Positions 2,750 to 23,026 of a DNA stretch of 43,011 bases are shown here, piece by piece. The stretch is from Actinomycetota bacterium. GTDB taxonomy: Bacteria; Actinomycetota; Actinomycetes; Mycobacteriales; Pseudonocardiaceae. The stretch is taken from contig JAJPIR010000129.1 of the NCBI GenBank assembly GCA_021324675.1, forward strand, positions 1-43,011, written 5' to 3'. Within the stretch, counting starts at the first letter, position 1. Every line of letters starts with the position of its first letter. A program made the position numbers and the translations under genes. The notes under the pieces were generated by a model. It was not told the DNA's origin. It saw nothing but the letters and a program-made list of their open reading frames with translations, and did not search any database.

Positions 2750-3520
2750 TCAGGCCAGTTCGGCGATAATCAGGTAATATCCGAGGTCCAGCTCTTGCTG
2801 TTCAACCAGCTCTGCGTACCTGTCCTGCCAGACCCCTGAATCGAGGTCTTGACGCAGCTTGTCCAACGCGTCGACGACATCCTGCTGAGGTAACCGGGCG
2901 AACAGTGAAATACCGGCACGCACCTCCGGGCGCAGATACGAGGTGGGACGCCGCCAAAATGCGCCATAGAAGCCGTCGTGGCAGTCGTGAGGAATTGGCA
3001 CCGGAACCAAGCGGACTGGACCCAGCTCCCGGGTCAAGTAGTCCCTGACCCAGATCCCAGGCTTATGAAAGGACCGCGGGATCAAGCGCAACACGCCGGG
3101 AAGATAGTCCCGAGTCAGCCAGAACCGCCCGGCCGCAGTGGGATCGGCGTTGAACAGCACCACTCGACGCCGGGCAACCCGGCGCAGCTCACGCAGACCC
3201 TGGCGGCGATCCTCCCAAAGGTGATCACTGAGTATGGCCATCGCCGCATCAACACGGTCAGTGCCTACTGGCAGCGCCTCCGCAACCGCACGCACGACCG
3301 GCGCTGCGTTCGCCGGACGATGGGCGATCATTACAGATGACGGCTCCACCGCGAGTACGTTGCGATCCGGCGGCTCATACGCCCCCGCCCCGGCCCCCAC
3401 ATTGAGTACCGAACGGGCATCTCCCAACCCCGCCCAAATCATCTGGGCGATCTGTGGATCGGTGCCACGCGTGACGGTATAGCTCCTACCAAGGACGTCG
3501 TACAGCCCAGCGTGAGCCAC
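2750..3520 (-). CDS. Class I SAM-dependent methyltransferase
   Basis: A 256-residue protein with a Rossmann-type SAM-binding fold. Motif I is VLNVGAGAGAYEP at residues 38-50, the acidic residue that binds the SAM ribose is in AVEPS at 58-61, and the post-I segment AEALPVGTDRVDAAMA corresponds to motif II. The C-terminal part (LPGVLRLIPRSFHKPGIW onward) is variable and probably binds substrate. The start is a GTG at 3520 without a strong ribosome-binding site, so the exact N-terminus is uncertain. It lies downstream of a GT4 gene on the same strand, 136 bp away, and is probably co-transcribed with it. A role in methylating the glycan or aglycone of the neighbouring cluster is inferred from position only. 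Confidence 0.8.
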   Translation of the reverse strand: MAHAGLYDVLGRSYTVTRGTDPQIAQMIWAGLGDARSVLNVGAGAGAYEPPDRNVLAVEPSSVMIAHRPANAAPVVRAVAEALPVGTDRVDAAMAILSDHLWEDRRQGLRELRRVARRRVVLFNADPTAAGRFWLTRDYLPGVLRLIPRSFHKPGIWVRDYLTRELGPVRLVPVPIPHDCHDGFYGAFWRRPTSYLRPEVRAGISLFARLPQQDVVDALDKLRQDLDSGVWQDRYAELVEQQELDLGYYLIIAELA

Positions 3521-3656
3521 GCACGCCAGTCAAGCGCAGGCAGACCCACTGCCGCACTGCGCGAGGCGGTAGAGGCTTCGCCCAGCGCCGATCTCAACGA
3601 CTTGGCGCAGCTGTGAAACCTGCTGGAGGGTTTCTCGCCGCCTGCGCTGACCGTGG

Positions 3657-4730
3657 TCACCGCAAGCGGCCACCGTTGGCCACTGCACGCAGCATGGTGA
3701 ACAGCTGGCCGGCCGATTCCTCCCAGGTCGGCAGGGCCGCCGCGCGCTGCCGGGCCGCCTGGCCCAGAGACCGACGGTAGGGCGCGTCGTTGATCAGCCT
3801 CCGCAGCGCGGCGGTGAGCCCGTTGATGTCCCCCGGTGGCAGGATCAGGCCCTCGCGCTCGTGGGTCGCCAGGTGCGGCAGGTTCCCGGCCCGCCAGCCG
3901 ACGACCGGCAAGCCCGCCGCCATCGCCTCGCCGTACGCCGTGCCGTAGGGCTCCCGGATGCTCGGCAGCACGAACACGTCGGCGCCGTGGTAGAGCGCGG
4001 AGACCTGCGCCCGGTTCAGCGGTCCGTGTACGACGACTCGCCCGGCCAGTTCGGGCGCAGCAAGCCGGGCATGGACCCGGGCGGCATAGCGCCGGTCGAT
4101 GTCATGGCGGCCGGCGAGGTGCAAGGTTGCCGCGTCCGGTGGGAGAGCTGCAACAGCGGCGAGCAACTCGAGCAGCCCTTTGCGGGGCACCCAGTTGCCC
4201 ACGTACAGCAATGCGGCCCGCCGCCCGCAGCGTAGATCATCGGCCACCGCCGCCGGCGGCCCCGCGTCCCGACCAGGCGGCACCACCACCGCACGAGCGC
4301 GCAGGTCGGCCGGCAACTCGGGAGCGAGCGCGGCACTGGCCAGCACCAGCGCCGCGGCCTGGCGGTAGACCAGCCGGTCGAGAGCGGCCTGCAGCCAGGT
4401 CCGTAGCGCGTTGTGGTCGATCCCGCCAGGAGGTTGGTGCAGGATCGCGACCAGGGGTATCGCCGATCGGCGCAGCACCAGGAGGGGGGCGAGAAAGGCC
4501 GCCGCGATGCTGTCCAGGACCACGACGTCGGCGGGTGAGCAAGCTCGCTGGAGCACCACGCCGGCGCGGGCGGCCGGTAACGGGAACGGCAGCGCGGGGA
4601 AGGATACGAACCGCAGCCGGGCGTCGTGCGCGGATGCCGCCTCCGCCATCCGCCGGTGATAGAGGTAGCCGCCGGTCAGCTGGCCGGGGTCACCCAGTGT
4701 GATCAGGGAGACGGACAGCATGCGGATCAT
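3657..4730 (-). CDS. Glycosyltransferase family 4
   Basis: A 357-residue GT-B fold glycosyltransferase. The N-terminal acceptor domain begins with a hydrophobic strand and LTGGYLYHRRMAEAA. The C-terminal donor domain has LYVGNWVPRKGLLELL, then VFVLPSIREPYGTAYGEAMA, whose EX7E-type Glu pair contacts the nucleotide sugar, then GLPVVGWRAGNLPHL. It ends with a helical tail. A GGAG sequence lies 8-11 nt upstream of the ATG at 4730; a second ATG at 4721 is also possible. Its 5' end overlaps that of the divergent GT4 gene. The N-terminal LTGGYLY-x-RR signature is shared with the GT4 at 18161-19279, which suggests a paralogous pair using similar substrates. Donor and acceptor are unknown. Confidence 0.88.
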   Translation of the reverse strand: MIRMLSVSLITLGDPGQLTGGYLYHRRMAEAASAHDARLRFVSFPALPFPLPAARAGVVLQRACSPADVVVLDSIAAAFLAPLLVLRRSAIPLVAILHQPPGGIDHNALRTWLQAALDRLVYRQAAALVLASAALAPELPADLRARAVVVPPGRDAGPPAAVADDLRCGRRAALLYVGNWVPRKGLLELLAAVAALPPDAATLHLAGRHDIDRRYAARVHARLAAPELAGRVVVHGPLNRAQVSALYHGADVFVLPSIREPYGTAYGEAMAAGLPVVGWRAGNLPHLATHEREGLILPPGDINGLTAALRRLINDAPYRRSLGQAARQRAAALPTWEESAGQLFTMLRAVANGGRLR

Positions 4731-5811
4731 TCAAGTGGCTCCCACACCATTCGGCAGGGAGGGGCTGTTCGGGGGCGGGGAACGGTACCCACTCGAGCTG
4801 GCCCGGGCACTCGCGCGCGAGGTCAGCTGCGAGCTGGTGACCTTCGGAGCATCTCCCCAGCTGGTGGTGGAACCGAGCGGGCTGCGGGTGCGTGTCCTGC
4901 CCACGCTGCTCCACCTGCGGCGCCATCCCGCGCATCCAGTCGCGTGGGGCCTGCCGGCTGCGCTGCATGGGGCCAGCCTCGTGCATACGCATCATTTACG
5001 CAGCGCACCGAGCCGCATGGCCGCGGTCACTGCCCGGATCACCGGGCAGCGGCTCGCGGTAACCGATCACGGGTTGGGTGGTGGTGGCTGGGCAGGGCTG
5101 TTGCCCCGGCTGTTCGACCATTTTCTTACCGTGTCGCGGCATTCGGCGCTGACGCTGCGCGCGCCACCCGCCAGAACGACCGTGATCTACGGGGGTGCCG
5201 ACCCCGTTCGCTTCTATCCCGACCCCACCGAGCAGCGCAGGGGGGTGCTCTTCGTCGGCCGGCTGACCCCGCACAAGGGCGTGGACCGGCTGATCCGGGC
5301 ACTACCGGCTGGCGCTGGACTGACGTGCGTGGGCACCGGCGGTCATGATCCGCATCCCCCGGAGAGTGGCTACGGGCAGCTGTTGCGCCGGCTGGCATCC
5401 GGACGGATGGTGACATTCGCCGGTGAGGTTGCCGATCATGAGCTACCGGTGCTGTACCGCCGTGCCCAAGTGGTCGTCCTGCCCTCGGTGCACCGGACGT
5501 GCTACGGCCGCGAAGTGGCAATCTCCGAGTTGCTTGGCCTCACGGTGCTCGAGGCCATGGCCAGCGGCACGCCGGTGGTGTGCAGCCGGCTTGGCGGGCT
5601 GCCCGAGGTGGTCGAGGATGGGACGACCGGGTTTCTGGTCACCCCCGGAGACGTCGATGAGCTGCACGACCGGATCGCGACGCTGCTCACCGATGCGGGG
5701 CTGGCGGCCCGGATGGGCGGCCGTGCTCGCGAACTGGTGCTCGACCGGTTCACCTGGCAGGCGTGCGCAGCCCGCTGCCTGGCGGTATACGACGATCTCC
5801 TGCGCGCCTGA
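4720..5811 (+). CDS. Glycosyltransferase family 4
   Basis: A 363-residue GT4 enzyme. The N-terminal domain starts MRIIQVAPTPFG and has the glycine-rich FGGGERYPLELARAL loop typical of retaining GT-B enzymes. The donor domain shows LFVGRLTPHKGVDRLIRALP, then VVVLPSVHR, and ELLGLTVLEAMASGTPVV with the two Glu residues of the EX7E motif. It finishes with GLPEVVEDGTTGFLVTPGD. The ATG at 4720 has GGGAG 9 nt upstream and was preferred to the in-frame ATG at 4699. The gene is divergent from the previous GT4 and overlaps its start by 11 bp. It ends 16 bp from the convergent dehydrogenase gene. The pairing with that type of dehydrogenase recalls actinobacterial clusters of unknown product. Confidence 0.9.
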   Translation: MRIIQVAPTPFGREGLFGGGERYPLELARALAREVSCELVTFGASPQLVVEPSGLRVRVLPTLLHLRRHPAHPVAWGLPAALHGASLVHTHHLRSAPSRMAAVTARITGQRLAVTDHGLGGGGWAGLLPRLFDHFLTVSRHSALTLRAPPARTTVIYGGADPVRFYPDPTEQRRGVLFVGRLTPHKGVDRLIRALPAGAGLTCVGTGGHDPHPPESGYGQLLRRLASGRMVTFAGEVADHELPVLYRRAQVVVLPSVHRTCYGREVAISELLGLTVLEAMASGTPVVCSRLGGLPEVVEDGTTGFLVTPGDVDELHDRIATLLTDAGLAARMGGRARELVLDRFTWQACAARCLAVYDDLLRA

Positions 5812-5827
5812 TCGGCCCCTCCCCGCG

Positions 5828-6895
5828 TCAAGGCCCGCAGTCTGGATGCAGACTGCTGTTTTCTGGGCGCCTTTTCCCGCAGTCCGCATCCAGACTGCGG
5901 GATGCGGGGTAGTCGAAGGCAGCGTGCAGCAGGCCGGGCTCACCATGGGCTAGGGCGTCGTAGGCTGTTGCGGGGTCATCGAACGGGAACACGTGGGTGG
6001 CGAGGACTTGTAGCGGCAGCTCCTTGAGCAGGCGTGCCACCGTGGCCCGGCGCCGATCACGGGTCCAGGCCGCGGCGAGCCGGGCGGGAATCGTGCTCAC
6101 CTGAGTGCTGCGGATGGTCAGGCGGCGCCGGTGGAACTCAGCGCCCAATGGCAGCGTGACCGGTCGCACCCCGTACCACGACGCGACGAGTGCGGTGCCC
6201 TCATGGGCCAGCAGCGGCAGGGCGGGACCGAGCGCGGCCGGGTCTCCGCTGACCTCGATGACCAGCGGTACTCCGGCACCGCCGGTCTCCGCCATCACGC
6301 TGCGCTCAAGGTCGTCGGGAAGCACCGTGTTGATCCCGAACTTCGCTGCCGCTTCCCGCCGCCACGGCTTGGGCTCGGCGGCAAGGACCCGGGCCCCGGC
6401 TCGCTGCAGCAGAGCCGCGGTGAGGATGCCGACCGCACCGAGCCCGATGACGACGACCGGCTGCCCCAGCACCCCGCCGGCATCAAGCGTGATCTGCAGG
6501 GAGGTCTCGACCAGCGGGAACAACGTGCCCAACCGCGGCTCCACAGACCCCAGCGCAACGGCGTCCGCAGCATCGACCACGAACAAGTCCTGGTGGGGGT
6601 GGAACGCGAAGACGACGTCTCCTGCCTCGAACGGATCCCGGGAGCGTTCTACCCGGCCGACGCAGCTGTAGCCGTAATGGAACGGGAAGGTGAACCGGTC
6701 CGCCAGCGCGGAGATCGACGAGTCGAGCGGAAGCTGCGGGTCGATGTCGCCGCGGTAGGCGAGCAGTTCGGTCCCCGCGCTGATGCCGGAGTACAGCGTG
6801 CGCACCAGCAGCTGCCCCCCGCGTGGTTCGGGCACCTCCCGCTCGCGCAGCTCCACTGCATGGGGAGCAATGAACGTCACAGCCCGTGCCTGCAC
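5828..6895 (-). CDS. Medium-chain dehydrogenase/reductase (zinc-type alcohol dehydrogenase-like)
   Basis: A 355-residue member of the MDR superfamily, of the subgroup often annotated as bacteriochlorophyllide dehydrogenase-like. The GroES-like N-terminal domain contains TLYSGISAGTELLAYRG and FHYGYSCVGRV. The Rossmann domain has VVVIGLGAVGILTAALL with the GxGxxG fingerprint. The usual catalytic-zinc Cys (CGTD-type) is replaced by SAGTE, as in this subgroup, so it may not be zinc dependent. The GTG at 6895 has GGAGG 5 nt upstream and is preferred to the TTG at 6907. The last 25 residues or so are encoded by an inverted-repeat element at 5834-5901, so the original stop was probably further upstream. 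It is probably an NAD(P)-linked oxidoreductase acting on a cluster intermediate. Confidence 0.82.
   Translation of the reverse strand: MQARAVTFIAPHAVELREREVPEPRGGQLLVRTLYSGISAGTELLAYRGDIDPQLPLDSSISALADRFTFPFHYGYSCVGRVERSRDPFEAGDVVFAFHPHQDLFVVDAADAVALGSVEPRLGTLFPLVETSLQITLDAGGVLGQPVVVIGLGAVGILTAALLQRAGARVLAAEPKPWRREAAAKFGINTVLPDDLERSVMAETGGAGVPLVIEVSGDPAALGPALPLLAHEGTALVASWYGVRPVTLPLGAEFHRRRLTIRSTQVSTIPARLAAAWTRDRRRATVARLLKELPLQVLATHVFPFDDPATAYDALAHGEPGLLHAAFDYPASRSLDADCGKRRPENSSLHPDCGP
5834..5901. repeat. 68-bp inverted-repeat element, copy 1
   Basis: Two 23-nt arms (5834-5856 and 5879-5901) are inverted copies with a single mismatch, separated by 22 nt. Each arm holds a smaller imperfect or perfect palindrome, GCAGTCTG-4 nt-CAGACTGC. 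The element lies at the junction of the convergent genes ending at 5811 and 5828, inside the 3' end of the dehydrogenase frame. The same architecture recurs at 24684-24751. It could act as a bidirectional terminator, or be a REP/MITE-like mobile repeat. Confidence 0.85.
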
Positions 6896-6925
6896 GCCCG
6901 CCTCCAATCACCTGCCACGTCCGTA

Positions 6926-7909
6926 TTACCCGGTCAGGCCAAGTTCGGCGACGTTCAGCGGCAGACCCGGGTCGGCACACAGGATCAGGTCCTGGACGCC
7001 GTACTCGTCGAGCAGCGCCACCGCGCCGAGGCGACTGGGCTCCAGCCGCACCAACCGGCCTGGCTGCGGGACATAGCAGCGGTAGCCGACCTCCTGGCAC
7101 AGCCGGGCGAGGAGCCTGCGCAACTGCGCCGTACCCGGGAGAACCTCGATCACCACAGTCGGCCGGTGCGCCCGCAGGTGGTCCTCGGCGGCGGCGAGCA
7201 GCGCGTGTTCCTGACCCTCGACGTCGATCTTGAGCAGGTCCACCCCGCCGAGCAGCGTTCGCACGTCGACCGTAGGAACCTCGATCGCCGCGCGCACGGG
7301 ACCGGCCATCGGTGCCGGTAACTCACTGTCACCGTCAAGGAAGGCCACGGTTGGCGCAACCAGCTGGTCCCGCGGGATCAGCAGCCGCGCTGTAGCTGCC
7401 GCCGGGCCGGCAACCGCGGCACCCGCGACAAGGTGCGCCGAGGTGACGGCGTTGAGGCCGAGGTTGGCCCGGCACAGCGACACCGAGGCCGGGTGCGGCT
7501 CAACCGCGGTGTAAGGGACGCCTGGCGCGGACCGCGCCCCTTGCACCACGAAGTACCCGACGTTGGCGCCCAATTCCAGGATCGCAGAGGAACGCAGGCA
7601 GAAATACCGCCACCATGGCAGCAGCTCGGGCTCCCAGCCTTGCTCGCCGAACCAGTACAGCTGGGCGAGGACCAGCGAATCGGCTGCGGCGAACGAGCGG
7701 GCCGGATTGTCTACCAGCCGGAATGTCCGGACGGCCGGAGGTATGCCGCCATGGCGCAGGGCGGTCAGCAGCGCGCGGCGGAAACGGCCGAGCGCGGTGG
7801 TCGCGGGCGCTGGCAGCGCGGTCCGCAACAAGTCGGCCACCGGCCTGGGCAGCCGGCGTACCACGGCACGCATCATTCCCTGCCCGATCTGCGCCAGCCG
7901 CCACGGCAT
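6926..7909 (-). CDS. FkbM family SAM-dependent methyltransferase
   Basis: About 327 residues. The methyltransferase core begins with ILELGANVGYFVV (motif I), then TAVEPHPASVSLCRANL, and continues to VDLLKIDVEGQEHALL, the hallmark DVEG segment of FkbM enzymes, then VVIEVLPG. These enzymes methylate hydroxyls of sugars, polyketides and other small molecules. The preceding 110 residues or so are basic and hydrophobic and are not part of the core. The start is uncertain: an ATG at 7909 has GGTGGG upstream, while in-frame GTG and TTG codons lie up to 7924. It is 30 bp upstream of the dehydrogenase gene on the same strand, so the two probably form an operon. It probably O-methylates a sugar or aglycone of the cluster. 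Confidence 0.85.
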   Translation of the reverse strand: MPWRLAQIGQGMMRAVVRRLPRPVADLLRTALPAPATTALGRFRRALLTALRHGGIPPAVRTFRLVDNPARSFAAADSLVLAQLYWFGEQGWEPELLPWWRYFCLRSSAILELGANVGYFVVQGARSAPGVPYTAVEPHPASVSLCRANLGLNAVTSAHLVAGAAVAGPAAATARLLIPRDQLVAPTVAFLDGDSELPAPMAGPVRAAIEVPTVDVRTLLGGVDLLKIDVEGQEHALLAAAEDHLRAHRPTVVIEVLPGTAQLRRLLARLCQEVGYRCYVPQPGRLVRLEPSRLGAVALLDEYGVQDLILCADPGLPLNVAELGLTG

Positions 7910-8001
7910 CACGATGCCCACCAACCACCCAGGTCTGTCGCCGTCCTCCGCGGCCCGTTAATGCATCGAAGCAGGCGGATTTGCGTCAGTACCTGTCTTC
8001 C

Positions 8002-8869: not shown

Positions 8870-10180
8870 GTGGAAGGCGTGCGTGAGTTGGCCCGGCTGG
8901 TCCTGCCGACACAGTTCGGTGAGTTCCAGGCCAGAGCCTTTGAGGTGTCCTCCGGCCTGGTCTACCTGGTGCTCATCAAGGGTGACGTGGGGTGCGGGGG
9001 CACCGTGCTGACCCGGTTGCATTCTGAATGCCTGACCGGTGATGCCCTCGGTTCCCTGCGGTGTGACTGCGGGGTCCAACTGCGCCTTGCGTTGCGCCGG
9101 ATCGCGACCGAAGGGCGCGGGCTGCTGCTGTACGCCACCGGGCATGAGGGACGTGGCGTGGGGTTGGTCAACAAGCTTTTGGCCTACGTGGAGCAAGACC
9201 GCGGCGCTGACACGTTGGATGCCAACCGGCGGCTGGGGTTACCCGTCGACGCGCGCAGCTATGACGACGCTGCCGCCGTGCTGCACGCTGTCCGTGTCGG
9301 TTCGGTGCGGCTGCTCACGAACAACCCGGCAAAGGTCAGGGGCCTGTGCGCGGCAGGGATCTCCGTTGAGCGGATGGAACCTCTGCAGACCGCGGCGCAT
9401 CACCGCAACCTCAGTTACCTGCGCGCCAAGCAACGACGGTTAGGCCACGTTGCGCCCCTCGGCCACCTGCCAGACACTGCACCGTCGGCGCCGCCGGATG
9501 TCACTGGCCTGCTCGGCAAGGTAGACCCGCCGTCCGACCGACCCTACGTGGTGGTGACCTACACGCAGACCCTGGACGGGCGGATTGCGACTGCCGTTGG
9601 CGACTCGACACGGTTCAGCGGCGAGGAACAACGCTGTGTCTGTCATGCGCTGAGGGCGGCCTGCGATGCGGTGATGGTCGGTGTGGGCACCGTGTTGCGG
9701 GATGACCCGCAGCTGATCGTGCGCCTGGTACCCGGTACTTCGCCGCTGCGCATCGTGCTCGACTCCACCTTGCGCATGCCGTCGACAGCGCGAATGCTCG
9801 ACGGGGGCCCGGTGACCGTTGTGCTGACCACCGGCCGGGCCGCCGAGAGCGATCGCGAGCGGTTGCAGGCGCTGGGCGCCGGGATCCGGATGGTACCGGC
9901 GGCCCCCGCCGGAGTAGACCTTCCCGCAGCTCTGGGGGTGCTGCGGGAGATCGGTGTGCGGACCCTGCTGGTGGAGGGCGGCGCGCGAGTGATCACTTCA
10001 TTGCTCGGCGCCCGGCTGGTCGACCGCCTCATCGTCGGCACGTCCGCGAAAATCATCGGTGCTGGGATCGAGGCGGTGGGTGACCTGGGGATTACCCGGA
10101 TGACGCAGGGCATCTCGCTGCGCAACAGGTGTATGCACGTCACCGCGGACGACGTCATCACCGCCTGGGACGTCGCTTGA
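8870..10180 (+). CDS. GTP cyclohydrolase II fused to RibD-type reductase
   Basis: A 436-residue two-domain enzyme. Residues 1-195 or so are GTP cyclohydrolase II, which opens GTP to a diaminopyrimidinone ribotide. RLHSECLTGDALGSLRCDCG carries the zinc ligands Cys54, Cys65 and Cys67. The catalytic region is YATGHEGRGVGL instead of the usual RQEGRGIGL. Tyr106 aligns with the Tyr that directs formation of the normal product. Residues 225-436 form a RibD C-terminal/dihydrofolate-reductase-like domain (YTQTLDGRIATAVGD, DAVMVGVGTVLRDDPQL, TLLVEGGARV), expected to reduce the ribosyl group to ribityl with NADPH. No RibD deaminase domain is present. The GTG at 8870 has AGGAGAGGAG upstream. No ribB, ribH or ribE lies nearby, so this is probably a specialised paralogue rather than the housekeeping riboflavin enzyme. 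Confidence 0.9.
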   Translation: MEGVRELARLVLPTQFGEFQARAFEVSSGLVYLVLIKGDVGCGGTVLTRLHSECLTGDALGSLRCDCGVQLRLALRRIATEGRGLLLYATGHEGRGVGLVNKLLAYVEQDRGADTLDANRRLGLPVDARSYDDAAAVLHAVRVGSVRLLTNNPAKVRGLCAAGISVERMEPLQTAAHHRNLSYLRAKQRRLGHVAPLGHLPDTAPSAPPDVTGLLGKVDPPSDRPYVVVTYTQTLDGRIATAVGDSTRFSGEEQRCVCHALRAACDAVMVGVGTVLRDDPQLIVRLVPGTSPLRIVLDSTLRMPSTARMLDGGPVTVVLTTGRAAESDRERLQALGAGIRMVPAAPAGVDLPAALGVLREIGVRTLLVEGGARVITSLLGARLVDRLIVGTSAKIIGAGIEAVGDLGITRMTQGISLRNRCMHVTADDVITAWDVA

Positions 10181-15389: not shown

Positions 15390-15797
15390 CTAATCTGGGA
15401 CGCCGTTGCCCAGCGGGCGCCGGTAGGCGGCGCTGGCCTCGGCGTCCTCCCAGACTGTCACCTCCAGAGCATCGATGTTGGGCATGCTCACCAGCAGCTG
15501 ATCGCTCAGGATCCGGCAGAAATGCTCCACACTGGGATTGAGGCCTTCGAATTCGGGCAGCTCGTTGAGCGTGTTGTCCCGGTAACGCTCCACCACGCCA
15601 TCTAATTTGCGGTTGATCTCATCGATGTCGAGCAGAAAGCCGTGACGGTCCAAGCTCGTACCCTCGTAGCGCGCCTCGATCCGGTAATGGTGAGAATTGA
15701 TCATGTTTTCGCGGCCCCAGTCACCGCCGACCAGGAAATGCTGCGCGATGAGCTCTCGCCGCACGGTCACGCTGTACCGCGGCTGCTCTGACGTCAC
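15390..15797 (-). CDS. 6-pyruvoyl/6-carboxytetrahydropterin synthase homologue (QueD-like)
   Basis: A 135-residue T-fold protein of the PTPS/QueD family, whose characterised members remodel 7,8-dihydroneopterin triphosphate using zinc and a catalytic Cys. His20 lies in LIAQHFLVGG, followed by INSHHYRIEARYEG (His36, His37), then GFLLDIDEINRKLDGVV, TLNELPEFEGLNPSVEHFC and the Glu of VWEDAEASAAYRR that anchors the pterin. In canonical members the metal site reads HxH with a Cys four residues earlier; here those positions appear to be Asn34 and Glu30, so metal binding or chemistry may differ. It is the last gene of a six-gene minus-strand operon, overlapping the deacetylase gene by 4 nt. Another GTP-using enzyme is encoded at 8870. 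Its true substrate is unknown. Confidence 0.82.
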   Translation of the reverse strand: MTSEQPRYSVTVRRELIAQHFLVGGDWGRENMINSHHYRIEARYEGTSLDRHGFLLDIDEINRKLDGVVERYRDNTLNELPEFEGLNPSVEHFCRILSDQLLVSMPNIDALEVTVWEDAEASAAYRRPLGNGVPD

Positions 15798-16684
15798 ATC
15801 TGCCTCCCTCTCCAGCGGTTGCGCCTGGCGCGCATCAACTCCCGCAACGGGCGCCAGCCGATGACCTGGATACCAGCCCTGCGCAGGTACTGGGCAAGCC
15901 CACCGCTGTGGAAGGTGTCGAAGTCGGCGACCCTATGGCGCCAGTCGGGAGTGATGGCCCGCAACTCGGGAGTGTCCGTGGCGGGATGGGTGATCAGGTA
16001 GGCCAGCCCGGGTGGTAGCTGGTCGAACAGTTCTTTGGCCACATCCAGCCGGTCTGCTGCCGGCCCGATGAGGGGCATCTCCCTGAGATGGTCGAACACC
16101 GGGAGTCCCTGCTGTTCCCATCCGGCGATGGCTGCCTCAGACACTGCTGCCACCCACTGCGGCTGGCGGGTCATCAGCACCGGGAGCTGCCGCTCGAAAC
16201 CGGCGCTGACGTACTCATCGACCAGTCCGCTGCGCACCAGCGAGAACATATGGCAGTCAAGATGGGTCACGTCCAACCCGGCCGCCACCGCACGGTCGAC
16301 TTGGGTCTCCACTTCGACGCGGACTGCCTGGGGATCGACGCTTCGCCACCGGTCTTGATTGCGGTAGAAGTAGCCCTCCTCGTCCAGCAGGCCGGATGCA
16401 GCATCCCGGGTGGACAGCGGACCCCAGCGGTAGCCATCCCATTCGCTGGTCAGCGTCAGGTGCACACCGACGTCAAGCTCAGCGTGCTGGCGGCAGCCAG
16501 CTGCCACCGCGGGGAACCAGGGACAGGGGACCATCACCGATCCGGCGGAGACAAGCCCACAGGCTGCCAGCTCGAAAAAAGCGTCGATCGTCGCAGCGCA
16601 CATTCCTACGTCATCGGCGTGGATGACGACAACCCGATCTTCTGCCGAGAAACCGAGATCCAGGAGCGCGGGGTTGGCGGTCAT
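15794..16684 (-). CDS. ChbG/HpnK (YdjC-like) family carbohydrate deacetylase
   Basis: A 296-residue TIM-barrel-like deacetylase. The family removes N-acetyl groups from sugars, for example diacetylchitobiose or lipid-linked GlcNAc. The metal site is visible: VVVIHADDVGM near residues 18-28 (catalytic Asp and metal Asp), VGVHLTLTSEW, THLDCHMFSL with the two metal-binding His, and YLITHPATD. The C-terminal GWRPLRELMRARR ends the fold. It lacks a signal peptide and is cytoplasmic. Its start overlaps the preceding gene's stop, and its own stop overlaps the next start, each by 4 nt, so expression is tightly coupled to the methyltransferases, the glycosyltransferases and the pterin-synthase homologue. 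It likely yields a free amino sugar in the product. Confidence 0.88.
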   Translation of the reverse strand: MTANPALLDLGFSAEDRVVVIHADDVGMCAATIDAFFELAACGLVSAGSVMVPCPWFPAVAAGCRQHAELDVGVHLTLTSEWDGYRWGPLSTRDAASGLLDEEGYFYRNQDRWRSVDPQAVRVEVETQVDRAVAAGLDVTHLDCHMFSLVRSGLVDEYVSAGFERQLPVLMTRQPQWVAAVSEAAIAGWEQQGLPVFDHLREMPLIGPAADRLDVAKELFDQLPPGLAYLITHPATDTPELRAITPDWRHRVADFDTFHSGGLAQYLRRAGIQVIGWRPLRELMRARRNRWRGRQM

Positions 16685-17295
16685 GGAATGGCGCCGATCG
16701 CGTAGACGGTGTCGGTGACCTTCGCCACCGTGACCGGCAACCGTCGTTCCAGCGCCAGGAGATCGTCGAAGGTCAGCTGCCAGCGAGGATCATTGTTCAC
16801 CGTCCAGTCCATGCCGCGCTGGTCGGTCAGGATCCGCCCGCGCGGCCGGAGGCACCAGAGATAGTTGTCCAACATCCGGAAAAAATGGTATTTGCAGCAG
16901 GCGAAGCTGGCCAGGTTGTTGTCGATAATTAGATCGTACCGATTTTTGATGGTCGTGAGGAATTCCCGGCTGTACTTGCTCAGGAAATAAACGGTGTAGT
17001 TGGCGATCTGCAGGGAGTCGGCGAGCTCCTTTTCTGCATGGCTCACGGTGAGGCCGTCCACCAGCCGGACCCGGCCGGCGAATCTCTGGGCGAACCGGGA
17101 ATTGCCCACGCCGACATGCAGGATGCACTGCTCTCGCAGATCCATTCCTTCGAGCACGTCCTCGATACACGCCTGGTCGACTGTCGTGTCCTCCCGGGTG
17201 TGATCGATCCAGATCGGCATATCGGTGGCCAGGCCCGGATGCTGCAGCCGGCCGCATATCTCGAGGCACGAGTCGTAACGGCTGGGAGCACTCAT
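16681..17295 (-). CDS. SAM-dependent methyltransferase-like protein
   Basis: A 204-residue protein with a Rossmann-like core. CILHVGVGNSRFAQRF at residues 57-72 is an atypical motif I, the acidic residue after strand 2 is in RLVDGLTVS, and YDLIIDNNLASF occupies the motif II position. LRPRGRILTDQRGMDW is typical of the later strand and loop. The lack of the usual GxGxG (here GVGNS) makes it a divergent family member, and it might bind another nucleotide-containing ligand. It overlaps both flanking genes by 4 nt in the six-gene operon. Substrate not predictable. Confidence 0.68.
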   Translation of the reverse strand: MSAPSRYDSCLEICGRLQHPGLATDMPIWIDHTREDTTVDQACIEDVLEGMDLREQCILHVGVGNSRFAQRFAGRVRLVDGLTVSHAEKELADSLQIANYTVYFLSKYSREFLTTIKNRYDLIIDNNLASFACCKYHFFRMLDNYLWCLRPRGRILTDQRGMDWTVNNDPRWQLTFDDLLALERRLPVTVAKVTDTVYAIGAIP

Positions 17296-18164
17296 GACCT
17301 TTCCCCCCTGGCGGCGACGAGGAGCCGGTAGCGCACGTCCCCCGAGGCGTGGAGTCGCTCCAGGGCGATCCCACCGAGATAGGCGGAGACGACGGTGCGT
17401 GCCGGGTGCAGCGGGATCCTGCGGTGAAGCAACGAGTACACCCGCTCCAGGCGATCCAGGATCTCTTCGGGGCGCGGGCGCATCAGAGCGCTGAGATCTT
17501 CCTCATGGCGCAGGGACAACCCGGCGCGGCCCAGCGCGGTGCGGTAGTCGTCGTAGGTCCAGTAACGGGCGCAGCCCCAGTGCCTGCGCAAAAGGCGAGC
17601 CTCAGCTGGTCTGTGGCGGTTGAGGTCACACGCCGCCATGTCGTCGAGGAGCAGGAGCACGCCACCGGGTTGCAGTGCACCGGACAGGTTGGACAGCGTG
17701 TGGCGCAGATCGGGGGAATGGATGAGCGACTCGATCGCGACGACCGCATCGAATCCAGTCCCGAGTGGCTCGTCGTAGCTTTGCAGCCGGAATCGGCAGA
17801 CGTCTGCGATCCCGCGCCGGCGGGCCTCCCGCTGCGCGACAGCCAGCTGGACCCGGCTCAGCGTGATGCCCTCATAGCGACCACCGATCCGCGGCTGCCA
17901 GTGGAAGATCGTCCCGCCGAAGCCGCAGCCTGCATCGAGCACCCGGGGAGTAGGGGGGAGATCGGCGACGGCCAGTACCCGCTCGTTGACGTACTCGACA
18001 CCTGCTGTGCGACGGTGCCCGCCGGCGTGCTCCGCTGGCTCGATTCCCAACCTCTTGTGCATGGTGAAGGACGCGAAGCGGTCCCGGTAGGCGAGCCAGT
18101 TGGTGAGCTGGACATAGCGAGAAAGCCAGTCGTAGTACTCCGGGAGCTGCTGGTGAGTGATCAC
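17292..18164 (-). CDS. Class I SAM-dependent methyltransferase (cyclopropane-synthase/sterol type)
   Basis: A 290-residue methyltransferase. Motif I is VLDAGCGFGGTIFHW at residues 75-89. EGITLSRVQLAVAQREA is the post-I segment characteristic of the cyclopropane-synthase and sterol/tocopherol methyltransferase group. VVAIESLIHSPDL follows, then GGVLLLLDDMA. The N-terminal 60 residues (YYDWLSRYVQLTNWLAYRD) form a helical cap over the active site. The GTG at 18164 overlaps the upstream GT4 stop as GTGA and was preferred over the in-frame start at 18251, which would overlap by 90 bp. It is probably O- or N-directed in this context rather than lipid-directed, because all operon partners handle sugars. 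The target is inferred. Confidence 0.85.
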   Translation of the reverse strand: MITHQQLPEYYDWLSRYVQLTNWLAYRDRFASFTMHKRLGIEPAEHAGGHRRTAGVEYVNERVLAVADLPPTPRVLDAGCGFGGTIFHWQPRIGGRYEGITLSRVQLAVAQREARRRGIADVCRFRLQSYDEPLGTGFDAVVAIESLIHSPDLRHTLSNLSGALQPGGVLLLLDDMAACDLNRHRPAEARLLRRHWGCARYWTYDDYRTALGRAGLSLRHEEDLSALMRPRPEEILDRLERVYSLLHRRIPLHPARTVVSAYLGGIALERLHASGDVRYRLLVAARGERS

Positions 18165-19279
18165 AGCGAGGTCTCTTTGCGCGTACGACCCTGATGCGAG
18201 GCTACCAGGCAGCAAAGCAGCTCCCGGGCGCACTGGAAGGATTGATCCCACGTCGGGTGGCAGGCGGCCCGCTGCCGTGCGGCAAGCCCCATCCGTAGCA
18301 ACAACTCGCGGTCGGTCATGAGCAGGCGGAGGTAGTTGGTCAGGGCCTCGACATCGCCCGGCGCGACGAAGAATCCCTCGTGGCCGTCGTCAACGACCTC
18401 GCACGCCCCTCCTGCGGACGTGGCGATCACCGGAAGCCCGCAGCGCATCGCTTCGAGGTAGGCGATCCCCAGGGCCTCGTATGACGAGGGCAGCGCCAGC
18501 ACATGGCCGCTACACAGGTGCTCAGCGACCCGTTGATTGGGCACAGCGCCGATGAGGTAGACGTTCGTCTCCAGGCCGAGGCGGCCGATCAGGCACCGGA
18601 GGCGTTTGACGTAACCGCGGTCTGCGGTCAGGCTGCCCGCCACCGTCAGCCGCCAGCTCCTGGCCGGGAGCCTGGCCAGCGCGGTGATCAGGTCGTGCAG
18701 TCCCTTACCGGGAACTACGTTGGCGATGCTGACCACCTGGAGGGGACCCGGCGCTCGGGCTCGCGCGGCCACCTCGGTTTCGGTTGTCTGCACGTTCAGG
18801 TGATCACCGCCGGGATAGGCGACGACGCCAGGAATGGAGTGACCGAGCAGGCCCTCCGCTGCGTGCCGAGTGGTATGGCAATTGAAGATCGCGGCATCGG
18901 CGGTGTCGAGGTAGCGACGTTCGACCGCCGCGTAGGCGTGACGCAGCAGCGACGCCCGCCGCTCGCTGGAACGCAACAGGTGAACGAGGGTGACGATGGG
19001 ATAACCGAACTGAGCCTTGAGCCAGCGGTTGAGCATGACCAGCGACGGGTGGTTGAGCTCGTCTTGGAGCAGGACATCGAAGCGCTCGCTTGCCAGCCGG
19101 CGGGCCAGTGACGGCGAGAAGTTGTCCGCGAGGTGGCGGGGGTAGGTCCGCAAGGGAAGGGAGATCACCCGCGTCTGGTCGCCCTGCGACCTCAGATAGT
19201 CGAGCAACCGGCGATCGTAGAGATATCCACCGGTGAGAATGTCGAGGCTGCCGAAGATGACAAGGCCGACCCGCATCAT
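18161..19279 (-). CDS. Glycosyltransferase family 4
   Basis: A 372-residue GT-B glycosyltransferase. It begins MMRVGLVIFGSLDILTGGYL with YDRRLLDYL directly after, the same N-terminal signature as the GT4 at 3657-4730. The donor domain shows VVSIANVVPGKGLHDLITAL, then HVLALPSSYEALGIAYLEAM with the paired Glu residues, GLPVIATSAGGACEVV and GHEGFFVAPGD. The ATG at 19279 is 8 bp after the previous gene's stop; a second ATG immediately follows. It is second in the six-gene operon. The two related GT4 proteins on either side of the cluster may add similar sugars, or the same sugar to successive positions. Confidence 0.9.
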   Translation of the reverse strand: MMRVGLVIFGSLDILTGGYLYDRRLLDYLRSQGDQTRVISLPLRTYPRHLADNFSPSLARRLASERFDVLLQDELNHPSLVMLNRWLKAQFGYPIVTLVHLLRSSERRASLLRHAYAAVERRYLDTADAAIFNCHTTRHAAEGLLGHSIPGVVAYPGGDHLNVQTTETEVAARARAPGPLQVVSIANVVPGKGLHDLITALARLPARSWRLTVAGSLTADRGYVKRLRCLIGRLGLETNVYLIGAVPNQRVAEHLCSGHVLALPSSYEALGIAYLEAMRCGLPVIATSAGGACEVVDDGHEGFFVAPGDVEALTNYLRLLMTDRELLLRMGLAARQRAACHPTWDQSFQCARELLCCLVASHQGRTRKETSL

Positions 19280-19287
19280 GCGCCCGC

Positions 19288-20346
19288 CTACATCCGCTCA
19301 GCGATAAAGCGTGTCAGGGCTTGACGCATCTCACTCACCGAGTATTTCTTCGCCCATCTGGAGCCGTCGATCCGGACGTCGTCGCGAAGGGCCTGGTCGA
19401 CGAGCTCGACGACGCAACCCTGCGGCGCGGTGATGTGCCCGTGAACGTGGGGACGCAAATCCGATGCGACGAAACCACGGTAGTCGCCGTTCACGACACA
19501 GGTCGTGCCGCACGCTATCGCCTCGATCAGCGCCATGCCGAAGCTTTCCTTCGGAGACGCAGACACGAACAGGCGGGCCCGGTTGCACAGCCGCGCGATC
19601 TCCTGTGCCGAGCGCCAGCTATCCATGGCTAGTGGATCTACGGGATCGATGCTCGACGCGACGGCCACGCCGTCGATGTATCGCTTCATCTCGCCGAAGT
19701 ACTCCGGATCGTCGACGCCCCCGGCCAAGTAAAGGGGCAGGCCGTACTTCTCGAAGATTTCCTGCCGGTAGCTGCTGACCAGCTCTAGCTGGTTCTTGTC
19801 AGGATGGATCCGGCCGACGGCGAGTATGAACTCTTCGTTTTTCCGGTCAGGATAGAAAACGTTGTCGTCGTACGAGCCGCCCATCAAAAGAAGATGGGGG
19901 TGCTGCTTGGTGGCGTGATGCGACAGGATGCCGCGGAACAGCCCCTCAGGCAGATCAGGATGTGGATAGGTATCGGTGAGACAGAAAGATGGGTGAAGCT
20001 CGGCCAGCCGTCTGGTGAATTTGTTGTCCTTGAAGCCGATGAAGACAACGAAGGCGAAGTCAAGGGCCTGCAGGTCGTCGATGTGCAGTCCTGTGTCGAG
20101 GGCTTTGCCTTGGTGGAACAATTGCATGGGCGCCCAGTCGCCTGTGCGGGTAAGGACGAAGTACATATCGTACTGGGGAAACATCGTTACTTGGTAATCG
20201 TGAACCAACCGCGCGCAGCCATTGGTGACGATCGGGTATGGGTTTGCGGTCGAGACCAGCAAGCCTCGCTTTTTCGCCTGCGGGATCTGGTCCGCGCCAG
20301 GCGCGCTGGCAGCGTTCGCGCTACCCGGAAGGATGATTGACCACAC
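19288..20346 (-). CDS. Glycosyltransferase family 4
   Basis: A 352-residue glycosyltransferase and the first gene of the minus-strand operon. The N-terminal domain (GLLVSTANPYPIVTNGCARL onward) is less typical. The donor domain is clear: FILAVGRIHPDKNQLELVSS, LPLYLAGGVDDPEYFGEM, then LFVSASPKESFGMALIEAIA with the EX7E Glu pair, and GTTCVVNGDYRGFVA. The listed start is a GTG at 20346; the first 20 residues are poorly conserved in appearance, so a later start is possible. It lies divergently to the DoxX gene with about 155 bp between, which must hold its promoter. It probably initiates or extends the sugar chain of the cluster product. Confidence 0.85.
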   Translation of the reverse strand: MWSIILPGSANAASAPGADQIPQAKKRGLLVSTANPYPIVTNGCARLVHDYQVTMFPQYDMYFVLTRTGDWAPMQLFHQGKALDTGLHIDDLQALDFAFVVFIGFKDNKFTRRLAELHPSFCLTDTYPHPDLPEGLFRGILSHHATKQHPHLLLMGGSYDDNVFYPDRKNEEFILAVGRIHPDKNQLELVSSYRQEIFEKYGLPLYLAGGVDDPEYFGEMKRYIDGVAVASSIDPVDPLAMDSWRSAQEIARLCNRARLFVSASPKESFGMALIEAIACGTTCVVNGDYRGFVASDLRPHVHGHITAPQGCVVELVDQALRDDVRIDGSRWAKKYSVSEMRQALTRFIAERM

Positions 20347-20437
20347 GGGTGAAGATCGTCAGCCGCTTGGGGCTACGGTAGTCCGGAATGTGGGAAACAC
20401 CTGCTGGTATGCACCATCCTTCTAGAATCAACTTGTA

Positions 20438-20497: not shown

Positions 20498-20502
20498 TTC
20501 TC

Positions 20503-20940: not shown

Positions 20941-20963
20941 CCGGTACGTGAGTCCATGATCAG

Positions 20964-22286
20964 ATGCTAGCCACGGGAAGTCGCGTAAGAATGGGTGGGT
21001 TGCTGCGCCACCACGATTTCCGCCGCCTGTGCGCCGCGAACGCGATCAGTAAGGTCGGGACGGGAATCAGTAACCTGGCGCTGCCATTATTCGCCGTGAT
21101 CACCCTGCATGCGTCGACATTCGAGGTGTCGATGTTGAACACCTTGCAGACCGTGGCGTATCTGTTGATTGGCCTGCAGGCCGGCGCCTGGTGTGACCGG
21201 ATGCGCTGCCGGCCCGTCCTTGTCTTCGCGGACCTCGGCCGCGCGATCGCGCTCGGATCAATTCCCATCGCGGCTGCTTTCGGGGCCGTCACGATGTGGC
21301 ATCTGTACCTGGCCGTCTTCGTCGCCGGCACGCTGACCGTGTTCTTCGATGTGGCGCACCAGTCGTATCTGCCACGTCTCGTCGAGCGTCACGATCTCAT
21401 CCAGGGCAACGCCACATTACGGGCCAGCATGTCTGTTTCGGCTCTCATTGCGCCAAGTCTCGCCGGGTACCTCGTGCAGCGGTTCACCGCTCCGGTTGCG
21501 ATATTGGTCGATGCCCTGAGCTACGTATGGTCGGCGATCTGGTTGAAGACCATCCGCAGGGGCGAACCGGATACGTACAGACACGTCCAGCAAAATCTCC
21601 GCGAAGAGATCCTGGAGGGTGCTCGGCTGGTATTCGGGAATCCGGTTCTGCGTGCCATCGGCCTCAACAACGCGATGACGTCGTTGTGCCAGTCCGCGTA
21701 CATGGCCATCGCCGTGGTATTCCTCGTTCGCGAGGTGCACCTTTCACCCAGCTCGATTGGTCTTCTCGGCAGTTTAAGCGTGATAGGAGCGCTTGCCGGC
21801 GCCGTGCTGGCCACGCGCCTGGCCAGCACGGTCGGCGCGGGCCGGATCTTATGGATCACCGCTTTGATCAACGGTTTAGCATTCCTGTGTTACCCGCTCA
21901 CCGACTCCGGCTGGCGCCTGGCGTTCACCATGGTGGCTGGTTTCGTGACCAGCGCCTGCCTCATGGTGGTCGTCGTCGTGCAGGTCAGCTTCCAGCAGAT
22001 GTTATGCCCTGACCACCTGCTGGGCCGGATGAACGCGACCATCAACTTCCTGTACTGGGGCGCGGCTCCGCTGGGCAGCTTGCTCGCTGGTGGCGTGGCA
22101 CAAGCGATCGGGCTGCGTCCAACCCTGTGGCTGGCCGCGGTGGGGATGCTGCTCGCAGCTGGCTGGTTGATCGCTTCTCCCTTGCCCACCATGCGCGATC
22201 TGCCAACGGGTGATGATGGTTTGCCCGACGCCAGCACCGCCGTCAGCTCAGGGCACGACGCGGCGGGCAGAAGTAGCCGCACATGA
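20964..22286 (+). CDS. MFS family transporter (probable exporter)
   Basis: A 440-residue major facilitator with about 12 transmembrane helices and the conserved loop 2-3 segment AGAWCDRMRCRPVLVFADLG. The overall pattern (LRHHDFRRLCAANAISKVG at the N-terminus, DVAHQSYLPRLVERHDLIQG mid-protein, a long cytoplasmic loop around residues 200-215) fits the enterobactin-exporter/tetracycline-resistance-like group common in natural product clusters. The start is at the ATG of 20964 or an in-frame ATG at 20991. Its stop overlaps the next start by 4 nt (ATGA), coupling it to a GT2 enzyme. Export of the cluster product, or self-protection, is the likely role. Direction and substrate are inferred. Confidence 0.87.
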   Translation: MLATGSRVRMGGLLRHHDFRRLCAANAISKVGTGISNLALPLFAVITLHASTFEVSMLNTLQTVAYLLIGLQAGAWCDRMRCRPVLVFADLGRAIALGSIPIAAAFGAVTMWHLYLAVFVAGTLTVFFDVAHQSYLPRLVERHDLIQGNATLRASMSVSALIAPSLAGYLVQRFTAPVAILVDALSYVWSAIWLKTIRRGEPDTYRHVQQNLREEILEGARLVFGNPVLRAIGLNNAMTSLCQSAYMAIAVVFLVREVHLSPSSIGLLGSLSVIGALAGAVLATRLASTVGAGRILWITALINGLAFLCYPLTDSGWRLAFTMVAGFVTSACLMVVVVVQVSFQQMLCPDHLLGRMNATINFLYWGAAPLGSLLAGGVAQAIGLRPTLWLAAVGMLLAAGWLIASPLPTMRDLPTGDDGLPDASTAVSSGHDAAGRSSRT

Positions 22287-23026
22287 GCCGCGTTATTTCC
22301 ATAATCACGGCTGCCCACCAGCGCAGCGTGCCCTATCTCCTTGACGCGTATGAGTCGCTGATTGCTCAGGAGTTGCCCGCTGGCTGGTGCTGGGAATGGT
22401 TGCTTCAGGAAGATGGCCGGAGCGGGGCGGTGGCCGCAGCCGTCCCCGACGATCCACGGATCAGCATCGGATCAGCCCGTCCCGGCGGCCCGGCCGTGAC
22501 TCGCACGATGGCAATGGCCCGGGCCAAAGGCGCGCTCGTCCGCAATCTCGATGCGGACGACAAGCTGCTGCCCGGGGCCATCGCCCGAGACATCACGGTT
22601 TTGACTCAGCGACCCACGGTTGGTTGGACAACTTCCCGCCTACTCAACTGGCTGCCCGACGGCACGATTGCGAGGTGGAGGCACCCGAATCCCGACGAGG
22701 GAGTGCTGGCGCGGGGCGCCATCCTGGAGTCCTGGCGATCGAATGGCTGGTTCCTGCCAATCCATCCGGTCACTCTGTGTATTCGGCGGAGTTTGCTCTT
22801 CGCGCTTGGTGGCTGGATGGCCCTGCCTTGCGCCGAGGACACGGGTCTGCTCATTGCGGCCAGCGTGGCTGCCGACGGTTATTTCATCAACGAACCGAGC
22901 CTGCTCTACCGCCATCACCCTCTCCAGATGACTGCACAGGTGGACCACGGTGACGGGCTCGACGGACACCGGCGACACCTCATCGCGGCGCGGGCTGACG
23001 CGCTGCGATCCCTGCTCCGGGACTGA
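22283..23026 (+). CDS. Glycosyltransferase family 2-like protein
   Basis: A 247-residue GT-A fold protein. VISIITAAHQRSVPYLLDAY opens the nucleotide-binding domain, followed by RTMAMARAKGALVRNLDADD, where DADD occupies the DXD metal-binding position. HPVTLCIRRSLLFALGGWM and CAEDTGLLIAASVAADG fit the acceptor/catalytic part (ED-type motif). It ends in a short Arg/His-rich tail without membrane helices, so it is cytosolic or peripheral. It overlaps the transporter gene by 4 nt. It probably adds a sugar to the exported compound, or inactivates it for storage before export; both are inference. Confidence 0.82.
   Translation: MSRVISIITAAHQRSVPYLLDAYESLIAQELPAGWCWEWLLQEDGRSGAVAAAVPDDPRISIGSARPGGPAVTRTMAMARAKGALVRNLDADDKLLPGAIARDITVLTQRPTVGWTTSRLLNWLPDGTIARWRHPNPDEGVLARGAILESWRSNGWFLPIHPVTLCIRRSLLFALGGWMALPCAEDTGLLIAASVAADGYFINEPSLLYRHHPLQMTAQVDHGDGLDGHRRHLIAARADALRSLLRD

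What the first reader, a model, noticed from the sequence alone, without database searches (positions are those of the whole stretch)
2750..23026. Candidate biosynthetic cluster joining heptose activation, GTP-derived ring chemistry and glycan tailoring
Within 20 kb there are HldE kinase and nucleotidyltransferase genes, a heptosyltransferase-like GT9, four GT4 enzymes and a GT2, five methyltransferases, two sulfotransferase-like proteins, a ChbG deacetylase, an MDR dehydrogenase, a GTP cyclohydrolase II-reductase fusion, a PTPS/QueD homologue and an MFS exporter. Actinobacteria are known to use activated heptoses in natural products such as septacidin and hygromycin. A pterin- or diaminopyrimidine-linked, methylated and sulfated heptose glycoside would fit these enzymes, but the product is inferred. 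I recall other actinobacterial loci combining a GTP cyclohydrolase II paralogue, a PTPS homologue and glycosyltransferases (for example near SCO6650-SCO6655 in S. coelicolor) whose products I do not know.
Basis: partly seen in the sequence, partly recalled or inferred. Interest (0 to 1): 0.75.

Follow-up and report, generated by a model that had tools for sequence, protein, structure and literature searches.

The report
GTP-derived glycoside gene cluster, product unknown
This stretch of an actinobacterial genome holds a gene cassette, found in several bacterial phyla and related to an uncharacterised Streptomyces locus, that probably turns GTP into a sugar-decorated pterin-like compound; the heptose and sulfate genes beside it are local additions.

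Summary
Comparison splits the locus in two. (1) A conserved core: two GT4 glycosyltransferases, an MDR dehydrogenase and a GCHII-RibD_C fusion, normally with a PTPS homologue between GT4 and MDR. It recurs in Actinomycetota, Chloroflexota/Thermomicrobiota and a few other MAGs. (2) A lineage-specific extension (HldE pair, GT9, sulfotransferase, YdjC, methyltransferases, GTs, MFS), shared with one close Pseudonocardiales MAG; HldE kinase occurs in only 2 of 51 comparison loci. The window lacks the cassette PTPS at its usual place and carries a divergent one 9 kb away with a zinc-ligand His changed to Asn. Best reading: GTP to diaminopyrimidine, reduction, oxidation and ring closure to a pterin-like scaffold, glycosylation, local decoration. 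The chemistry is inferred and the product unknown. Part of the neighbourhood (PTPS-IV with GCHII and RibD_C) is in print. New variant of a known kind.

The parts
3657..4730 (-). GT4 glycosyltransferase 'B', core cassette
   Evidence: Pfam PF00534 101.6 bits; 46-65% identical in cassette loci other than the close relative, fragments apart
4699..5811 (+). GT4 glycosyltransferase 'C', core cassette
   Evidence: PF00534 111.6 bits; 24 of 39 loci
5828..6907 (-). MDR dehydrogenase, core cassette (BchC-like, not BchC)
   Evidence: PF00107; TIGR01202 75 bits against cut-off 291; 31 of 39 loci
6926..7924 (-). FkbM-type methyltransferase, recurrent accessory
   Evidence: PF05050, TIGR01444; 4 of 51 loci and L023
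8067..8759 (+). HTH_20 regulator upstream of the fusion gene
   Evidence: PF12840 38 bits; 1 of 51 loci, the close relative
8870..10180 (+). GTP cyclohydrolase II - RibD_C reductase fusion, core cassette (start codon chosen here; the longest ORF starts at 8723)
   Evidence: PF00925 174 bits, PF01872 151 bits; start codons listed; Cys motif and Tyr switch residue
10197..11048 (-). sulfotransferase, local accessory
   Evidence: PF13469 37.5 bits; 2 of 51 loci
11087..12166 (-). GT9 (heptosyltransferase-family) enzyme, recurrent accessory; approximate start
   Evidence: PF01075 81.7 bits; 5 of 51 loci, 45-52% outside the close relative, two of the five from one genome
12174..12992 (-). protein of unknown family, sulfotransferase-like only by eye; approximate start
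   Evidence: no Pfam family at E<=1; conserved 83% in the close relative
12993..14060 (+). HldE kinase-like (PfkB), local accessory; approximate start
   Evidence: TIGR02198 245 bits, below cut-off 345
14064..14609 (+). HldE nucleotidyltransferase-like, local accessory
   Evidence: TIGR02199 149.8 bits, below cut-off 181.5
14606..15379 (+). methyltransferase, local accessory
   Evidence: PF08241 72.2 bits
15390..15797 (-). divergent PTPS homologue, away from the usual cassette position
   Evidence: PF01242 72.6 bits; outside the 23-row cassette PTPS clade; NxH in place of HxH
15794..16684 (-). YdjC/ChbG-type deacetylase
   Evidence: PF04794 151 bits
16681..17295 (-). unknown 204-aa protein, methyltransferase-like only by eye
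   Evidence: no Pfam or NCBIfam family; 89% in the close relative
17292..18251 (-). methyltransferase
   Evidence: PF08242 51.7 bits
18161..19279 (-). GT4 glycosyltransferase, distant paralogue of 'B'
   Evidence: PF00534 130.7 bits; about 26-32% to the 'B' family
19288..20346 (-). GT4 glycosyltransferase
   Evidence: PF00534 46.1 bits
20964..22286 (+). MFS transporter, presumed exporter
   Evidence: PF07690 112 bits
22283..23026 (+). GT2-like protein, borderline
   Evidence: PF00535 23.1 bits against 23.3
   Evidence: PF00300 158 bits; relatives near the cassette in L053, L054, L067, L090

Best explanation
A biosynthetic cluster built on a conserved GTP-consuming core. Step 1 (well supported by family and residues): the GCHII half of the fusion opens GTP to 2,5-diamino-6-ribosylamino-pyrimidinone 5'-phosphate. 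Step 2 (likely): the RibD_C half reduces the ribosyl group to ribityl without prior deamination, so the 2-amino-4-oxo edge is kept. Step 3 (inferred): a phosphatase removes the phosphate, the MDR enzyme oxidises a side-chain hydroxyl, and the resulting ketone can close on the 5-amino group to give a dihydropterin-like scaffold, held or tuned by the PTPS homologue. Step 4 (inferred): the two GT4 enzymes glycosylate it. In the window's lineage it is further decorated (GT9 with an HldE-type activated sugar, methylation, sulfation, deacetylation) and exported by the MFS carrier. Shown here: the genes, their conservation and order, and residue patterns. Not shown: any reaction or the product.
For: Core co-occurrence: nine non-own genomes matched the fusion protein; in 9 of 9 MDR, a PTPS homologue and GT4 'B' lie beside it, GT4 'C' in 5 of 9 (in one, L025, only the RibD_C half matched, and in L024 the gene is cut by the contig end). 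Around 27 SCO6650-like PTPS genes, 26 have an MDR-profile match and 26 a GT4 B-profile match within 1.5 kb. Chemistry: GCHII Cys motif intact and switch Tyr present; the best solved match of RibD_C is 6p8c, named a reductase of the non-deaminated substrate (109.3 bits; 2azn 108.5; bacterial RibD about 86); no deaminase domain among Pfam hits of the 43 window ORFs scanned. The PTPS homologues keep the Glu that in PTPS/QueD contacts the pterin (role recalled; column). FolB lies beside the core in 4 of 4 f19 loci fetched at 13-20 kb and in L055. HAD phosphatase genes recur in 5 loci and histidine phosphatases in 4 besides the window. The close relative is syntenic over the cluster.
Against: No product, no expression, no assay. 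NCBIfam puts the RibD_C half over the general ribD_Cterm cut-off but below that of the archaeal reductase (135.8 against 186.45), and PDB names 2azn after the deaminated substrate, so 'no deamination' is not settled. In six f19 genomes the FolB near the core is the genome's only FolB and may simply be the folate gene; in G397 it is one of three. The window's PTPS is not the cassette orthologue and has lost a zinc ligand, so step 3 may not run as drawn. Four Chloroflexota loci (L066, L068, L069, L070) have no PTPS by profile and three of these no RibD_C; three f19 loci (L098-L100) and L097 show no GCHII in 20 kb, so parts are missing or lie elsewhere. PHP-phosphatase genes near f19 cores also occur near unrelated PTPS genes. 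HldE and GT9 rarely accompany the core.
Confidence: 0.55

Rival explanations
1. A mosaic: a GTP-derived cassette and an unrelated envelope-glycan (heptose, GT, sulfotransferase) locus happen to lie side by side.
For: HldE, sulfotransferases, YdjC, GT4 S and the methyltransferases other than FkbM are rare or absent in the 51 comparison loci, within flanks of at most 10 kb; core and extension are separable.
Against: GT9 also sits with the core in L055, L059, L061, L063 at 45-52% identity, and FkbM in three Geodermatophilaceae loci. A PTPS gene ends the minus-strand gene run 20346-15390 while the core lacks its own. Both halves are kept in a relative at 81-87% DNA identity, though the housekeeping genes beyond are syntenic too.
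Confidence: 0.3
2. The core makes a flavin or lumazine derivative (riboflavin paralogue pathway, roseoflavin-like).
For: GCHII and RibD_C are riboflavin-pathway enzymes.
Against: No deaminase, lumazine synthase or riboflavin synthase domain among Pfam hits of the 43 window ORFs scanned. The genome has another GCHII and other RibD_C-like genes.
Confidence: 0.08
3. The core makes a 7-deazaguanine (preQ0-type) glycoside, as in huimycin.
For: PTPS/QueD homologue plus glycosyltransferases.
Against: The QueD motif CxxxHGH is absent from all PTPS rows; no radical SAM QueE or QueC domain among Pfam hits of the 43 window ORFs scanned; GCHII rather than GCHI.
Confidence: 0.04
4. The core product is a lipid-anchored head group rather than a secreted glycoside.
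For: Streptomyces-type and Micromonosporaceae loci carry CDP-alcohol phosphatidyltransferase and LPG-synthase-TM genes, f19 loci an acyltransferase.
Against: No such genes among Pfam hits inside the window cluster; the window has an MFS carrier.
Confidence: 0.12

Closest known systems
SCO6650-SCO6655 type locus of Streptomyces (SCO6650 = PDB 3d7j)
   Same: MDR - PTPS - B-like GT4 (about 30% identity) in the same order, with a GCHII 4-5 kb away; SCO6650 is the best solved match to the cassette PTPS profile (59.6 bits)
   Different: In 4 of 4 Streptomyces-type loci viewed GCHII has Met at the switch position, a creatininase-family gene is adjacent and no RibD_C is seen. That SCO6655 makes FAPy through Met120 is recalled, not read here; the Met is residue 123 of the L092 ORF. 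The window has Tyr and a fused RibD_C, and no creatininase among its Pfam hits.
PTPS-IV neighbourhood (AGeNNT, PMC5445326, section 19 read)
   Same: PTPS homologues with PF00925 and PF01872 neighbours, function open
   Different: That section does not mention MDR or GT4 partners and calls PF00925 GTP cyclohydrolase I/FolE2. The FGPAQ signature is in the SCO6650 type but not in the window PTPS.
Septacidin or hygromycin heptose pathways (recalled)
   Same: HldE-type kinase and nucleotidyltransferase in an actinobacterium
   Different: No HldD over cut-off and only sub-cut-off GmhA-like genes in the genome, none of them in the window; MIBiG was not available
Archaeal/fungal DARP reductase route of riboflavin synthesis (route recalled)
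   Same: Closest solved sequences to the RibD_C half
   Different: Here fused to GCHII and placed with MDR, PTPS and GT4 genes; below the NCBIfam archaeal-reductase cut-off

Membership tests
GTP cyclohydrolase II | Zinc Cys motif C-x10-C-x-C and curated score | tested here: met
   HSECLTGDALGSLRCDCG; NF001591 200.4 over cut-off 148; TIGR00505 201.8 just under 205.85
GTP cyclohydrolase II (APy-forming) | Tyr at the switch position (role recalled) | tested here: met
   Tyr in 37 of 42 rows, the window and the genome's second GCHII included; Met in 4 (L092-L095); one row unreadable
RibD C-terminal reductase | Score over TIGR00227 cut-off | tested here: met
   159.3 against 150.15
Archaeal-type reductase of the non-deaminated substrate | Score over TIGR01508 cut-off | tested here: not met
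   135.8 against 186.45, although 6p8c is the closest solved sequence
PTPS-I / QueD | CxxxHGH (PMC5041015) | tested here: not met
   Window reads ENMINSH at that place
PTPS-III | ExxHGH (PMC5041015) | tested here: not met
   In the window the Glu is four, not three, residues before the first motif His position, and that His is Asn
PTPS-IV | FGPAQ signature (PMC5445326) | tested here: not met
   Window VGGDWGREN; the SCO6650 type has FGPAQ
Conserved core cassette described here | GT4 B, GT4 C, MDR, GCHII and RibD_C close together, PTPS between GT4 and MDR | tested here: inconclusive
   All but the PTPS position met; 16 bp between GT4 C and MDR; PTPS at 15390-15797 is outside the cassette clade
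HldE (ADP-heptose synthesis) | Equivalog cut-offs and partner genes GmhA, GmhB, HldD | tested here: not met
   TIGR02198 and TIGR02199 below cut-off; GmhA-like 156.7 against 209.45; HldD best 103.9 against 274.6; GmhB not searched
BchC | TIGR01202 cut-off | tested here: not met
   75 against 291 bits
Known MIBiG cluster | Gene-content match to a characterised cluster | not testable with these tools
   No MIBiG library; paper searches were

The most novel reading that the evidence does not exclude
The core is a GTP-cyclohydrolase-I-independent route to a dihydropterin: GCHII opens GTP, RibD_C reduces C1' of the ribose and the MDR enzyme re-oxidises C2', which together mimic the Amadori rearrangement done by GCHI, so that the ketone closes on the 5-amino group; GT4 enzymes then cap the pterin. 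It would be a cross-phylum family of glycosylated pterins.
Probability: 0.15. Interest if true: 0.85.

Novelty: new variant of a known kind. Interest (0 to 1): 0.55.

Why it matters
SCO6650 has a solved structure but, as far as these searches show, no known role. Placing it in a cassette with recurring partners (MDR, GT4, GCHII, often RibD_C) in several phyla turns an orphan into a testable pathway with named cultured hosts of cassette loci (Geodermatophilus ruber, Actinoallomurus purpureus, Catenuloplanes japonicus, Virgisporangium) besides Streptomyces. The Tyr/Met switch with its creatininase partner gives a specific prediction about where FAPy is handled.

Tried and rejected
Plasmid collection: 116 records matched the fusion protein, none over 80% of it, and none matched the MDR at E<=1e-40. 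Fold models of the two unlabelled proteins: mean pLDDT 30 and 34, discarded, no fold search made. Idea that the window PTPS is simply the cassette gene moved: not borne out, it falls outside the 23-row actinobacterial cassette clade (99/100 support), though its own position is unresolved and its branch is long. Idea that the window PTPS marks a second widespread cluster: 28 non-own genomes of 396 matched at 25-38% identity; of 14 loci fetched, 13 lack the MDR and GT4 B, one of these (L158) having GCHII and RibD_C 5-7 kb off, and one, L162, is a full core. Idea that GT4 R is the Streptomyces-type GT4: unresolved, long branches. Phage and E. coli collections and viral contigs were not searched.

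Dropped before counts: L020 and L021 MDR were left out of the MDR profile because their translated ranges held a stop, and L025 MDR was not used. In the 39 loci, L089 and L091 pass no threshold, L090 only GCHII, and L073, L074, L086, L087 only GT4 B; L073, L086, L089 and L090 are short contigs, and the rest of L073's cassette was found in L114. All are kept in the 39.
Full report
What is in the window. The GT2 is just under its cut-off, and the second sulfotransferase and fifth methyltransferase have no profile support. Models of these last two were of no use. The window lies in a 5.63-Mb, 364-contig genome that holds another PTPS and another GCHII elsewhere.

A conserved core. The GCHII-RibD_C fusion is rare: 10 of 396 phylum genomes at E<=1e-60, the window's own included. 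In the nine others the neighbourhood was fetched. All nine have the MDR dehydrogenase (51-58% to the window), a PTPS homologue and GT4 'B'; five have GT4 'C'. In one of the nine (L025) only the RibD_C half matched, and in L024 the gene runs off the contig. The usual layout is GT4 B / GT4 C / PTPS / MDR / divergent fusion. A scan of genome contigs with the GT4 B alignment gave 39 named loci. By profile, 36 have GT4 B (by design), 32 GCHII, 31 MDR, 27 RibD_C, 27 PTPS and 24 GT4 C; 17 have all six and 7 lack only C. By record title the hosts range over Actinomycetota, Chloroflexota, Thermomicrobiales, one Proteobacteria MAG and one Thermoanaerobacterales MAG (L073 with L114). In L055, L057 and L081 GCHII and RibD_C are separate genes, so the fusion is one form of a wider pair. 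Exceptions: L066, L068 and L070 lack PTPS and RibD_C, L069 lacks PTPS, L063 lacks MDR and RibD_C, L078 lacks GCHII and GT4 C, L071 lacks RibD_C at a contig end, two 21-kb Actinomadura loci (L074, L087) have GT4 B alone, and five further loci are short contigs or a non-member (L073, L086, L089, L090, L091).

Kinship with the SCO6650 locus. The best solved match to the cassette PTPS profile is 3d7j, SCO6650 (59.6 bits). A 96-residue piece of it found 27 of 396 genomes. Within 1.5 kb of these 27 PTPS genes, 26 have an MDR-profile match and 26 a GT4 B-profile match (two of the GT4 scores are weak, 64 and 76 bits); 18 also have RibD_C. In the four Streptomyces-type loci fetched a GCHII lies 4-5 kb away; in L097 (57% identity) none was seen in 20 kb. 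Catenuloplanes and Virgisporangium loci carry the fusion together with accessory genes shared with the Streptomyces type (CDP-alcohol transferase, and in Virgisporangium LPG-synthase-TM), and so bridge the two.

Residues. GCHII switch position: Tyr in 37 of 42 rows (one of them the genome's own second GCHII), Met in four, all Streptomyces-type, one row unreadable. Those four loci also have a creatininase-family gene (PF02633), found in no other of the 51 loci, and no RibD_C within the 20 kb viewed. I recall, without having read it here, that SCO6655 forms FAPy because of Met120 and that an archaeal FAPy deformylase is of the creatininase family; the Met is residue 123 of the L092 ORF, which fits if the start codons differ by three. 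If so, the pattern is coherent: Met with creatininase, or Tyr without. The window is of the Tyr type. None of the PTPS rows has CxxxHGH. Actinobacterial cassettes keep HxH, the SCO6650 type has HxA and the window NxH. The pterin-contacting Glu (role recalled) is kept in the window and in every row that could be read. The RibD_C half is closest to 6p8c, a reductase named for the non-deaminated substrate, and to 2azn, which PDB names for the deaminated one; it is over the general ribD_Cterm cut-off and below the archaeal one.

The window's own twist. There is no PTPS between GT4 C and MDR (16 bp gap). A divergent PTPS (26-33% to cassette ones, which are 45-87% to each other) ends another gene run 9 kb away. 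It falls outside the 23-row actinobacterial cassette clade. A close relative, Pseudonocardiales MAG CP_BM_RX_74, has the same arrangement: window 3658-13879 matches L053 (86.8% DNA), 14519-20551 matches L111 (84.7%) and 20997-22971 matches L111 (80.8%), the break falling at contig ends. The methyltransferase at 2750-3520 is absent there, and an insertion of about 7.5 kb lies between the GT4 S and MFS genes. Synteny runs on into the amino-acid permease and kdpDE, so this pair does not set the borders.

Heptose part. In 51 comparison loci (members or not, flanks of at most 10 kb), HldE kinase-like genes occur in L053 and L081 (36%), the nucleotidyltransferase in none (a 29-residue contig-end piece is in L111, which was not among the 51), GT9 in five (two from one genome), FkbM in four and sulfotransferase H in two. 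HldE kinase relatives at E<=1e-35 are in 7 of 296 phylum genomes, own included, the others at 35-39%. GmhA-like genes exist elsewhere in the genome below the cut-off, and HldD over its cut-off was not found. ADP-heptose is therefore possible but unproven; the HldE pair may activate another sugar.

Pterin hint and its limit. FolB lies beside the core in L098, L099, L100, L162 and L055. But in the six f19 genomes searched that FolB is the only one, so it may be the folate gene; in the Thermomicrobiales genome G397 it is one of three. Three of those f19 loci show no GCHII in 20 kb.

Prior art. PMC5445326 (section 19 read) describes PTPS-IV (561 sequences, FGPAQ) with PF00925 and PF01872 as neighbours and gives no function. 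PMC5041015 (passages seen) ties PTPS-IV to F420 as an unpublished statement. Searches for the SCO locus tags found two papers with single mentions, seen only as listings (PMC2853524, PMC3610822). I saw no paper that names the MDR or GT4 partners, within an open-access library and the ten searches made.

Verdict. A real and conserved GTP-to-glycoside cassette with lineage-specific decoration. The proposed route (GCHII, reductase, dehydrogenase, ring closure, glycosylation) is inference from families and residues.

Noticed in passing
L092, L093, L094, L095 (Streptomyces-type loci): GCHII Met switch residue, adjacent creatininase-family gene and missing RibD_C go together; suggests a FAPy-to-APy deformylase partner.
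   Followed up: partly
L111:2370-8826: The close relative carries about 7.5 kb extra between the GT4 S and MFS genes. By eye the ORFs look like a FAD monooxygenase, an aminotransferase and a P450, with a partial MFS copy at the edge.
   Followed up: partly
window:2750-3520: Methyltransferase missing at this place in the close relative and in the 51 comparison loci; a recent insertion, or a loss there.
   Followed up: partly
L098, L099, L100, L162: In six f19 genomes the only FolB gene lies about 2-3 kb from the SCO6650-like PTPS, a hint of folate-cassette linkage.
   Followed up: partly
L074, L087: Two Actinomadura genomes have a cassette-type GT4 B alone at this locus, and a SCO6650-type PTPS-MDR pair elsewhere (L112, L113).
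   Followed up: partly
window:35854-39667: ATP-dependent ligase and LigD primase/phosphoesterase genes (end-joining set) near a DUF5753 regulator and a Methyltransf_19 gene.
   Followed up: no
window:40385-42324: Styrene-monooxygenase-like protein (Smoa_sbd) beside an ATP_bind_1 protein.
   Followed up: no
PMC5445326, section 19: The paper calls PF00925 a GTP cyclohydrolase I / FolE2; Pfam names it GTP cyclohydrolase II, which changes how its PTPS-IV neighbourhood should be read.
   Followed up: yes
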